A DNA stretch of 64,000 nucleotides from Williamsia serinedens (GTDB lineage: Bacteria > Actinomycetota > Actinomycetes > Mycobacteriales > Mycobacteriaceae): assembly GCF_024171725.1 (NCBI RefSeq), contig NZ_JAMTCG010000001.1, positions 310,001 to 374,000 on the forward strand, written 5' to 3'. The translations under genes were made by a program, and so were the position numbers. Within the stretch, counting starts at the first letter, position 1, and every line of letters starts with the position of its first letter. The notes under the pieces were generated by a model, which saw only the letters and a list, made by a program, of their open reading frames with translations, did not search any database and was not told the origin of the DNA. Shown piece after piece: positions 16,287 to 17,830 of this stretch.

Positions 16287-16401
16287 ATCTCAGCACAGGA
16301 GACCGCGTCCGCGACGCGGCGGTCAAGACGCCCGTCCACACCCTCGCCGCCTGTGGACAGACCGATTGGCCGACGGCGGTGAGAACGTCATGGTTCCGTG
16401 C

Positions 16402-16850
16402 ATGGACATCGACGACCCGATCCCGCCTCTCGAGACCGCCGAGGACCCGTTCACGTCTCCGGAGGAGCTCCGGCAGCGTTGGCGCGCCCTGATGGGACCG
16501 CTCGGCTTCTCGGAACCGCTCGTGTGGGTGGCGCCCGTGCATCCCGATCGCACGCTGCACAAGGCGCTGATCCAGGTGGAGCGGACTCTCGTGCCGAACC
16601 GTGTCTCGCCGACCTGCTCATGCTGCGGTTGTCGGAGCTGCTCGACGGTAGGGAGGACCACGTCTGTGGGTTCGCGCTGCTGCTGACACGACCTGGGCGC
16701 AACGGCGTCTCCCCGTGGGACCGCGGGTGGACCCGTCTGCTCGCGAATGCGGCCGGAGCCGTCGACGTGCCCCTCGAGCCGGTCTTCCGCGCGAATGCCC
16801 GGGACGGACGAGAGGTCCCCCTCGTCGTCGACGAGCGCCCCGCTGCATGA
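16402..16850 (+). pseudogene. Conserved hypothetical gene interrupted by a frameshift
   Basis: Two overlapping reading frames look like halves of one protein. From the ATG at 16402 the frame encodes about 68 sensible residues ending LIQVERTLVPNR (near 16602). It then becomes cysteine/serine-rich nonsense to 16686. In the frame one base back, sensible sequence resumes at ADLLMLRLSELL (16608) and runs to the stop at 16850. Adding one base near 16600-16607 would give one protein of about 149 residues. I see no slippery heptamer, so a decayed gene or a sequencing error is more likely than programmed frameshifting. The family looks like an actinobacterial hypothetical; function unknown. Confidence 0.6.
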
Positions 16851-16921
16851 GCGACGCGGCGAACCAGTTGCGACGAGCCGAAACTTTGATGAATCGGATC
16901 AGATCTTCGCGATACGACACC

Positions 16922-16927
16922 TACGGT
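16922..16927 (+). promoter_or_regulatory. -10 box, first peptide gene
   Basis: TACGGT fits TANNNT, 46 bases before the GTG at 16974. It occupies exactly the same offset as TACCGT before the second peptide gene, which supports both as -10 elements. No convincing -35 box is seen. Confidence 0.45.
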
Positions 16928-16973
16928 CGCGGTGCGGACGCCGTGGGGCATCCCGTTCGGGAAAGGATCGATC

Positions 16974-17108
16974 GTGGGCTCTCTGGAGAACATCAACGCA
17001 CTGCTCACCCTGTGGAACAGTCTCGGCGGCGCCCCCAGCGCCGGCGTCGGCGGGTTGGGCCTCGCTCAGCTGCTCGGCGGCCTGTTCGGCGGCCTCCTGG
17101 GAGGCTGA
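16974..17108 (+). CDS. Small hydrophobic acidic peptide, copy 1 (44 residues)
   Basis: A 44-residue peptide beginning MGSLENINALL and ending in a glycine/leucine-rich helix (GLAQLLGGLFGGLLGG). It has one acidic residue, no lysine, arginine, histidine or cysteine, and no cleavable signal peptide. The start is set by the strong GGGAAAGGA ribosome site ending eight bases upstream. A second gene 124 bases downstream encodes a related peptide with the same leader. Size, acidity and the lack of a signal resemble the PorA/PorH pore-forming peptides of corynebacteria, but I see no clear sequence match to them. A membrane-active or structural peptide is the safest description. Confidence 0.6.
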   Translation: MGSLENINALLTLWNSLGGAPSAGVGGLGLAQLLGGLFGGLLGG

Positions 17109-17139
17109 CCGCGTAGCTCGAACCACCCGCAACATCCGA

Positions 17140-17167
17140 AAAGTTTGTTAAATCGGACACAAACTTT
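17140..17167. promoter_or_regulatory. Inverted repeat upstream of peptide gene 2, possible operator
   Basis: AAAGTTTG (17140-17147) and CAAACTTT (17160-17167) form a perfect inverted repeat with a 12-base spacer, just upstream of the -10 box at 17181. A single AAACTTTG half (16881-16888) lies at the matching place before peptide gene 1. This AT-rich stretch stands out from the surrounding GC-rich sequence. Confidence 0.4.
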
Positions 17168-17180
17168 GTCATTTGACATT

Positions 17181-17186
17181 TACCGT
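17181..17186 (+). promoter_or_regulatory. -10 box, second peptide gene
   Basis: TACCGT fits TANNNT at the same 46-base distance from the start codon as the matching box of copy 1, within an ungapped 82-base alignment of the two leaders. Confidence 0.45.
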
Positions 17187-17232
17187 CACGGGACGGACGC
17201 ACCGCCGCGTCCGATTCGGGAAAGGATCGACC

Positions 17233-17358
17233 ATGGGTTCTTCAGACCTCGCCGCACTGCTCGGACTGCTGTCGTCGGGGAGCGCGGGTGGTGGCGACAC
17301 CGAGCCGACCACCGGCCTCGGCGGTCTGCTGAGTGGCCTCCTCGGCCTGTTCGGCTGA
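17233..17358 (+). CDS. Small hydrophobic acidic peptide, copy 2 (41 residues)
   Basis: A 41-residue peptide starting MGSSDLAALLGLL and ending GLGGLLSGLLGLFG. Like copy 1 it has only acidic charges (Asp, Asp, Glu), no basic residues or cysteine, two glycine/leucine helices around a GGGDTEPTTG turn, and no signal peptide. The ATG is preceded by the same GGGAAAGGATCGA ribosome-site block as copy 1; an ATG at 17173 would add 20 residues but skips that site. It is followed nine bases later by a strong terminator. A porin-like or other amphipathic membrane peptide is possible; function unknown. Confidence 0.6.
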   Translation: MGSSDLAALLGLLSSGSAGGGDTEPTTGLGGLLSGLLGLFG

Positions 17359-17366
17359 CCCTTCGA

Positions 17367-17410
17367 CACGACGACGCCCCCGGAGCAGTGGCTCCGGGGG
17401 CGTCGTCGTG
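17367..17410. terminator. Strong 20-bp hairpin terminator
   Basis: A perfect 20-bp stem (17367-17386 with 17391-17410) around an AGTG loop, with a CCCCCGGAGC/GCTCCGGGGG core. It lies between the second peptide gene on plus and the end of the tRNA-Val(GAC) gene on minus, so it probably serves both directions. Confidence 0.85.
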
Positions 17411-17416
17411 TTCTGG

Positions 17417-17488
17417 TGCGCGATACTGGGATTGAACCAGTGACCTCTTCCGTGTCAGGGAAGCGCTCTCCCACTGAGCTAATCGCGC
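17417..17488 (-). tRNA. tRNA-Val (anticodon GAC)
   Basis: The cloverleaf folds with the 7-bp acceptor GCGCGAT/ATCGCGC, a D arm with GCTC..GAGC, the anticodon stem CTTCC/GGAAG with loop CTGACAC (anticodon GAC), a TTCAATC T-loop and discriminator A. CCA is not encoded. It is the last gene of the minus-strand Gly-Cys-Val tRNA cluster. Confidence 0.95.
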
Positions 17489-17510
17489 GGGTATTGAGTT
17501 GACGATCTGG

Positions 17511-17581
17511 AGGCGGCGACGGGAATCGAACCCGTGTGCACGGCTTTGCAGGCCGTTGCCTCACCACTCGGCCACACCGCC
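17511..17581 (-). tRNA. tRNA-Cys (anticodon GCA)
   Basis: The acceptor stem GGCGGTG/CGCCGCC contains one G-T pair, and the discriminator base is T, typical of tRNA-Cys. The anticodon loop CTGCAAA gives GCA and the T-loop is TTCGATT. It is the middle gene of the minus-strand tRNA cluster. Confidence 0.95.
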
Positions 17582-17602
17582 ACGGTGAAAATTCATCCTC
17601 CG

Positions 17603-17675
17603 AGCGGATGACGGGATTCGAACCCGCGACCCTCACCTTGGCAAGGTGATGCGCTACCAGCTGCGCTACATCCGC
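17603..17675 (-). tRNA. tRNA-Gly (anticodon GCC)
   Basis: The acceptor stem is GCGGATG/CATCCGC with discriminator T. The anticodon stem TCACC/GGTGA holds loop TTGCCAA (anticodon GCC), and the T-loop is TTCGAAT. It is the first gene of the minus-strand tRNA cluster, about 34 bases after the predicted transcription start. Confidence 0.95.
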
Positions 17676-17715
17676 GTGCCCGCGCTGCCTTGTGGGCCTC
17701 GCGGTGCGAAAGGGA

Positions 17716-17744
17716 ACACTATCCGAGGCCCGGACCGCTTACAA
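17716..17744 (-). promoter_or_regulatory. Promoter of the tRNA Gly-Cys-Val cluster
   Basis: Reading the minus strand: TTGTAA (17744-17739), a 17-base spacer, then TAGTGT (17721-17716). Both boxes fit the housekeeping sigma consensus well, and the predicted start is about 34 bases upstream of tRNA-Gly. Confidence 0.7.
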
Positions 17745-17830
17745 ATCGCCTGGTGAGCGTCATTTCGCCGATCGGGTCCGGGTGGTGCGGGCGACAGGCC
17801 GGCGATGCGGGGGCACCGGAATCACCGTGA

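What the first reader, a model, noticed from the sequence alone, without database searches (positions are those of the whole stretch)
16878..17410. Tandem pair of tiny acidic hydrophobic peptide genes, possible PorA/PorH-like membrane peptides
Two consecutive genes encode 44- and 41-residue peptides that start with MGS, end in glycine/leucine helices, and contain no basic residue or cysteine. Each has a strong ribosome site, and the pair ends in a perfect 20-bp hairpin. Size, acidity and lack of a signal peptide recall the small pore-forming peptides PorA and PorH of corynebacteria, which are hard to detect by similarity. This organism probably also has a mycolate outer membrane. Genes this short are usually missed in annotation.
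Basis: partly seen in the sequence, partly recalled or inferred. Interest (0 to 1): 0.8.

Follow-up and report, generated by a model that had tools for sequence, protein, structure and literature searches.

The report
Tandem genes for tiny envelope peptides
Two tiny, conserved genes in a Williamsia genome encode short acidic helix-forming peptides of a fast-changing family also found in related mycolic-acid bacteria; they may act like the small pore peptides of corynebacteria, but that is untested.

Summary
In detail: 16974-17108 (GTG, 44 aa) and 17233-17358 (ATG, 41 aa) encode MGS-starting, K/R/H/C-free peptides, each with a GGGAAAGGA ribosome site and a -10-like box 52 nt upstream; a perfect 21-bp hairpin follows, probably shared with the convergent tRNA-Val. 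The pair occurs at the same locus in 2 of 7 other Williamsia genomes (one has three copies), with dN/dS 0.21-0.48. Profiles plus synteny revealed relatives of 19-44 aa: in a second genus (probably Gordonia, recalled) beside phoH in 14 of the 30 loci read, with a 15th having a pair further off, and, less firmly, a tandem pair in a third genus. Common traits: few or no basic residues, predicted or likely helix, often MGS start, no signal peptide by inspection, -10 box. AlphaFold gives helix-linker-helix with Ser/Thr in the linker, as published for PorA. The genome encodes Cmt1-like enzymes, but also four MspA-family proteins. Membership in PorA/PorH is not shown: no family hit, different locus. 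Best reading: PorA/PorH-like, possibly O-mycoloylated mycomembrane peptides (about 0.45). Pore formation, export and acylation are untested.

The parts
16922..16927 (+). -10-like box TACGGT, 52 nt before the peptide 1 start
   Evidence: TANNNT within -82..-46 in 25 of 25 upstream regions of the family; shuffles mean 6.6, max 14 of 25; interval chosen after inspection, relatives not independent
16959..16967 (+). ribosome site GGGAAAGGA of peptide 1
   Evidence: sequence; GGGAAAGGA also before the five copies in the two Williamsia relatives
16974..17108 (+). peptide 1 gene, 44 aa, MGSLENINALLTLWNSLGGAPSAGVGGLGLAQLLGGLFGGLLGG (GTG start)
   Evidence: orthologues 90% and 93% identical in two Williamsia genomes; dN/dS 0.21-0.30; predicted helices 3-18 and 26-43
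17181..17186 (+). -10-like box TACCGT of peptide 2, 52 nt before its start
   Evidence: same caveats
17218..17226 (+). ribosome site GGGAAAGGA of peptide 2
17233..17358 (+). peptide 2 gene, 41 aa, MGSSDLAALLGLLSSGSAGGGDTEPTTGLGGLLSGLLGLFG
   Evidence: orthologues 90% and 70% identical; dN/dS 0.28-0.48; predicted helices 3-18 and 25-40
17366..17411 (.). perfect 21-bp hairpin without T-run; likely shared terminator with the convergent tRNA-Val
   Evidence: a like hairpin is visible after the last copy in G007

Best explanation
The two genes are tandem duplicates of a fast-evolving family of signal-less mini-peptides, poor in basic residues and helix-forming, of mycolic-acid bacteria. Supported by computation: conserved genes, each with a ribosome site and a -10-like box, coding-type substitution, a modestly amphipathic helix in peptide 1, predicted helix-linker-helix in both, relatives in a second genus and less firmly in a third, tandem copies at several loci, and Cmt1-like enzymes in the same genome. 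Inferred: the peptides leave the cell by the unknown route used by PorA/PorH, are esterified with mycolic acid on a Ser/Thr of the flexible linker by a Cmt1-like enzyme, and assemble as (hetero-)oligomers in the mycomembrane as small channels or structural peptides.
For: Pair conserved at the same place in 2 of 7 other Williamsia genomes, one with three copies; dN/dS 0.21-0.48, Fisher p 0.011, 0.017, 0.045, 0.065 for the four comparisons with the window. Similar peptides in genus g9 beside phoH and a tandem pair in g16; dN/dS 0-0.23 in ten comparisons among five g9 members. A -10-like box in 25 of 25 upstream regions. Helix-linker-helix models with S22 (peptide 1) or T23 (peptide 2) in the linker, mean pLDDT 74.4 each, as described for PorA with its modified Ser15 in the linker between two helices (PMC11927696, passages). 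O-mycoloylation sites lie among Ser, Gly and Ala in flexible stretches (PMC11066868, passages). [quoted passage not shown] Best solved-structure match is Cmt1 for 3 of 4 mycoloyltransferase-like proteins tested of this genome, strongest 235 bits versus 158 for PS1 and 103 for Ag85A.
Against: No sequence homology to PorA/PorH shown: no Pfam or NCBIfam hit, no PDB profile hit, no Foldseek match for peptide 1, different genomic location. Four MspA-family matches in the genome. Sparse: 3 of 8 Williamsia genomes, so not essential in the genus. The second helices are Gly/Leu-rich and nearly without charge, unlike a lining for a wide water-filled pore; many relatives are 19-31 aa, room for one helix only. 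In peptide 2 the best helical moment lies in the very hydrophobic second helix. Three MGSLENIE-type relatives show no significant synonymous excess (dN/dS 0.33, 0.57, 1.86). AlphaFold models rest on 3 sequences each, pTM 0.37. No expression data.
Confidence: 0.45

Rival explanations
1. Inner-membrane mini-proteins: regulators of a membrane complex, or type I toxin peptides that depolarise the membrane when expressed.
For: Short hydrophobic peptides in tandem copies with their own promoter-like boxes; no secretion signal by inspection; a Gly/Leu second helix fits a membrane helix.
Against: No sigma-70-like site on either strand of 16600-17800 in the consensus scan, a weak test that also missed the -10-like boxes proposed here, so no sign of an antisense RNA; no basic residues in the window's two peptides; best helices of several relatives are acidic and amphipathic.
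Confidence: 0.2
2. Secreted surfactant or aggregating peptides that work like phenol-soluble modulins: small amphipathic helices without signal peptide, exported by a dedicated ABC transporter, changing surface wetting, foaming or biofilm.
For: Size, tandem genes, amphipathic helix in several members, fast sequence turnover.
Against: No Pfam family hit; no transporter was recognised among the neighbours looked at, but none was searched for systematically; no basic residues in the window's peptides.
Confidence: 0.15
3. Not functional as peptides: regulatory leaders or chance ORFs in a GC-rich intergenic stretch.
For: Very short; present in only 3 of 8 Williamsia genomes; three MGSLENIE-type relatives in g9 show no significant synonymous excess (dN/dS 0.33, 0.57, 1.86).
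Against: Orthologue conservation with synonymous excess, conserved ribosome sites, no gene to regulate directly downstream (next come three tRNAs on the other strand), recurrence in another genus; a scan for such ORFs in six Williamsia stretches finds the five known copies in two of them and only unrelated-looking ORFs in the other four.
Confidence: 0.05

Closest known systems
PorA/PorH of Corynebacterium glutamicum, and PorACj / PorACur of C. jeikeium / C. urealyticum
   Same: 37-57 aa, start Met only, no signal sequence, helical, tandem or single genes (jk0268 closed by a stem-loop), poorly conserved in sequence even among themselves (PMC3792995, PMC5944148, PMC12632848, passages read)
   Different: Locus is not groEL2-ppk2; no detectable sequence relation; relatives go down to 19 aa; the host has MspA-family proteins; channel activity and acylation unknown
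ProtX and other O-mycoloylated mycomembrane proteins
   Same: ProtX lacks a signal sequence; O-mycoloylation favours Ser/Gly/Ala-rich flexible stretches (PMC11066868, PMC12632848, passages)
   Different: No sequence comparison with ProtX was made; modification unknown
Phenol-soluble modulins
   Same: Size, tandem genes, amphipathic helix, no signal peptide (recalled)
   Different: No Pfam hit; no basic residues in the window's peptides; different lineage
MspA-family porins
   Same: Cell-wall channels of related genera (PMC9233653, passages)
   Different: Much larger subunits with signal peptide; four matches are present separately in this genome

Membership tests
PorA/PorH porins | 37-57 aa polypeptide without signal sequence | tested here: met
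   44 and 41 aa, no basic n-region by inspection; no signal-peptide predictor was run
PorA/PorH porins | located between groEL2 and ppk2 | tested here: not met
   neighbours are an AFG1 ATPase, a GNAT and a PGPGW protein, tRNA-Val/Cys/Gly/Val, and an ORF recognised as thrS
PorA/PorH porins | sequence similarity to PorA or PorH | tested here: inconclusive
   no Pfam or NCBIfam hit, but whether these libraries hold a PorA/PorH model was not checked; the family profile gave only rejected matches in genus g3; no PorA/PorH sequence was aligned; PorACj itself shares only 11-14% conserved residues with PorA and PorH
PorA/PorH porins | two helices with the acylated Ser in the linker (PorA) | tested here: inconclusive
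   AlphaFold helix-linker-helix, linker S22 or T23, pLDDT 74 from 3 sequences each; acylation unknown
PorA/PorH porins | O-mycoloylation by Cmt1/MytC | not testable with these tools
   only the enzyme class was checked: Cmt1 is the best PDB match of 3 of 4 proteins tested
PorA/PorH porins | channel formation in lipid bilayers | not testable with these tools
   needs experiment
phenol-soluble modulins | match to a curated family of such peptides | tested here: inconclusive
   no Pfam family at E<=10 for any of 6 peptides; which modulin models Pfam holds was not checked, and so short a query is a weak test

The most novel reading that the evidence does not exclude
A hypervariable class of signal-less mini-peptides (19-44 aa), found here in two and probably three mycolata genera other than Corynebacterium, is exported by the unknown PorA/PorH route, anchored by O-mycoloylation, and forms peptide-only channels or scaffolds of the mycomembrane beside MspA porins.
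Probability: 0.35. Interest if true: 0.82.

Novelty: new variant of a known kind. Interest (0 to 1): 0.6.

Why it matters
In the passages read here, PorA/PorH-type peptides are described only from Corynebacterium, and how such signal-less peptides cross the membrane is said to be unclear (PMC12632848). A second set of tiny genes in Williamsia, whose genome also carries Cmt1-like enzymes, and in related genera would let the export route and the substrate rule of protein O-mycoloylation be tested by comparison. It also shows that genes of 19-45 codons in mycolata can be found by combining ribosome site, composition and synteny where profile searches alone miss them.

Tried and rejected
Profile A3: 13 of 401 genomes, 3 Williamsia and 10 others at E 0.006-0.048; at E<=0.05 about 20 chance matches are expected over 401 genomes. 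Three of the ten (G118, G359, G363) proved to be start-aligned tiny genes with ribosome sites; seven were not accepted. Profile A5: 16 of 401, 12 start-aligned, 4 in frames of 258-1611 aa and not accepted (G153, G232, G237, G340). Profile A6 in genus g9: 11 of 59, 9 intact, one partial with an apparently interrupted frame (G309), one in a 578-aa frame not accepted (G161). Profile A7: 25 of 401, 18 with start-aligned tiny genes, 7 dropped (G011, G128, G161, G224, G237, G327, G337); G224 and G337 were read, the other five were judged by frame length 344-1611. These later profiles contain the g9 peptides, so their strong E-values there are partly by construction. The g16 hit (G066) has E 2.8e-4, about 0.1 chance matches expected over 401 genomes; its 19-aa neighbour rests on the ORF scan alone. 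L029 (g22): signal-peptide-like protein with GSAESLAPLLELLATGSAGE repeats resembles peptide 2, but E 0.006 is not significant. PDB profile search, Foldseek (peptide 1 only), phage and plasmid tblastn (one peptide each): nothing. Syntenic stretches of G003, G004 and G006: no such peptide by MGS scan or by composition scan; the G002 stretch has neither the tRNAs nor the GNAT and AFG1 genes; the G005 contig begins at the anchor gene, so its upstream side is unknown. The phoH loci of the 8 Williamsia genomes held none. Leaderless start at GTG 16932 for peptide 1: thought unlikely because the peptide 2 copies and the third copy have no start codon there.

The name Gordonia for genus g9 and the 8.4-kDa Rhodococcus erythropolis channel protein (Lichtinger 2000: not held; only citations seen) rest on recall. 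phoH, thrS, the L,D-transpeptidase-like, lipoprotein-like and TetR-like genes are named by recognition; no family search was run on them.

Full report
Observation. Peptide 1 (16974-17108, GTG, 44 aa) and peptide 2 (17233-17358, ATG, 41 aa) are as described: MGS start, no K/R/H/C, net charge -1 and -3, GGGAAAGGA before each. The hairpin is a perfect 21-bp stem (17366-17411), z -8.8, no T-run, next to the 3' end of a convergent tRNA-Val. In the 64-kb window three ORFs of 20-60 aa with ATG or GTG start combine a purine-rich ribosome site with absence of K/R/H/C; two are these.

Source and conservation. Two record titles name relatives as Williamsia (uncultured isolate 235-3Z and W. deligens DSM 44902). 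Eight genomes of the genus were searched, the window's own included. Peptide 2 has start-aligned matches in two other genomes (E 2.4e-11 and 0.0013), peptide 1 in the same two (E 1.6e-16 and 8.1e-16). Both lie before the same tRNA cluster, with the GNAT and AFG1 genes beyond them. One of the two (G007) has a third, 26-aa copy between them. The syntenic stretches of G003, G004 and G006 hold no such peptide; the G002 stretch has another gene order and the G005 contig ends too early. A composition scan of six stretches finds exactly the five known copies in the two relatives and five unrelated-looking ORFs in the other four. dN/dS is 0.21-0.30 for peptide 1 and 0.28-0.48 for peptide 2; Fisher p 0.011, 0.017, 0.045 and 0.065 for the four comparisons with the window. 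The copies share a conserved upstream block.

A wider family. A profile of the Williamsia peptides gave weak hits in a second genus, g9; three of them turned out to be 26-28 aa genes beginning MGSLENIE with AAGGAG ribosome sites, between a gene recognised as L,D-transpeptidase-like and one recognised as phoH (the flanks of two of the three were read). A profile with these matched 16 of 401 family genomes, 12 of them start-aligned tiny genes, and, extended, 11 of 59 genomes of g9 at E<=0.01, 9 of them intact; the g9 peptides are in these profiles, so the strong E-values there are partly by construction. Synteny went further: all 59 g9 genomes have the phoH-like gene; the 30 loci returned, those nearest the query and so a biased sample, were read, and 14 of 30 carry a tiny gene convergent with it: four MGSLENIE-type, five MTSLENVE-type, and five of a different type (such as MGSFDTITALWATLAELIAAGIPLGSS) that the first profiles missed. 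A fifteenth (G304) has a tandem pair further off: MNFFELWAALAELIAAGIPLGSS and MGSAESLDLLTSLLTLLNTLSSSAPAA. In a sixteenth (L093, G309) the frame appears interrupted. The phoH-like loci of the 8 Williamsia genomes have none. The final profile matched 25 of 401 genomes, of which 18 have start-aligned tiny genes. New was G066 (g16, E 2.8e-4): MGSIEDLDVLTTLLEFLQALGGSGSASS, followed by MDFGFLTTLLSLLASGSAA found by ORF scan alone. Most members have no basic residue; exceptions are H in G395, R in G367 and G293, and K in the third copy of G007. Among five MTSLENVE members dN/dS is 0-0.23; among three MGSLENIE members it is 0.33, 0.57 and 1.86, which does not show constraint.

Promoter. A TANNNT box lies in -82..-46 of 25 of 25 upstream regions (shuffles: mean 6.6, maximum 14); the interval was chosen after inspection and relatives are not independent. 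In Williamsia it sits at -52 or -53 in 7 of 7 copies. A sigma-70 consensus scan found nothing in 16600-17800.

Structure. AlphaFold from three sequences each gives helices 3-18 and 26-43 (peptide 1) and 3-18 and 25-40 (peptide 2), mean pLDDT 74.4, pTM 0.37; no PDB fold match for peptide 1. Best 14-residue helical moments are 0.26-0.50 for ten peptides; shuffles of the same 14 residues reach the value in 0-73 of 2000, but the best window was chosen per peptide, which biases this. In peptide 1 it lies in helix 1 (71 of 2000), in peptide 2 in the very hydrophobic helix 2.

Envelope context. Four MspA-family matches occur in this genome and 4-7 in each of the 8 genus members. Seventeen PF00756 matches occur, 15 over the cut-off. 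Of four mature mycoloyltransferase-like proteins tested (of 11 loci from which a frame was extracted), three have Cmt1 as best solved relative (181, 202 and 235 bits) and one has PS1. Cmt1 is the protein O-mycoloyltransferase of C. glutamicum (PMC11066868, PMC9671496, passages).

Reading. In the papers seen (passages only) PorA/PorH-type peptides are signal-less, 37-57 aa, helical, and barely conserved; PorACj and PorACur were found by gene position (PMC3792995, PMC5944148). PorA carries its mycolate on Ser15 between two helices (PMC11927696), and sites lie among Ser, Gly and Ala (PMC11066868). The window's peptides match that description in form: no signal peptide by inspection, two predicted helices, a linker rich in small residues with a Ser or Thr. 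They do not share locus or demonstrable sequence, so they are not filed as PorA/PorH. The most likely mechanism is that they work like them, at about 0.45. Inner-membrane regulators or toxins (0.2) and secreted surfactant-like peptides (0.15) remain open.

Literature. Searches for Williamsia with porin, mycomembrane and small proteins, for Gordonia and Rhodococcus with PorA/PorH, for the R. erythropolis channel protein, and for Gordonia small ORFs listed no paper that by title or start of abstract describes these peptides; listings were capped (12 of 366, 10 of 435) and only open-licence papers are held.

Noticed in passing
window 16390-16850: Between GNAT and peptide 1 lies a coding-looking stretch (MDIDDPIPPLETAEDP... 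then ...LADLLMLRLSELLDGRED...) split over two frames: a broken or misread gene; no Pfam hit for the ORF 16398-16850.
   Followed up: partly
L029:1141-1575 and 2509-2931: In genus g22 two neighbouring signal-peptide-like proteins consist of repeats (GSAESLAPLLELLATGSAGE; GSSNFATGLSNLLTSGSGG) resembling peptide 2 in composition; the match is not significant (E 0.006 in one of 401 genomes).
   Followed up: partly
L140:1498-1584 and 1798-1857: Tandem pair of 28 and 19 aa K/R-free peptides in genus g16, near a lipoprotein-like gene and a TetR-like gene (names by recognition only).
   Followed up: partly
L020:1543-5270: In G007 about 3.7 kb separates GNAT from the peptide genes, versus about 0.7 kb in the window and 0.2 kb in L021: an insertion-prone spot next to the tRNA cluster.
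   Followed up: no
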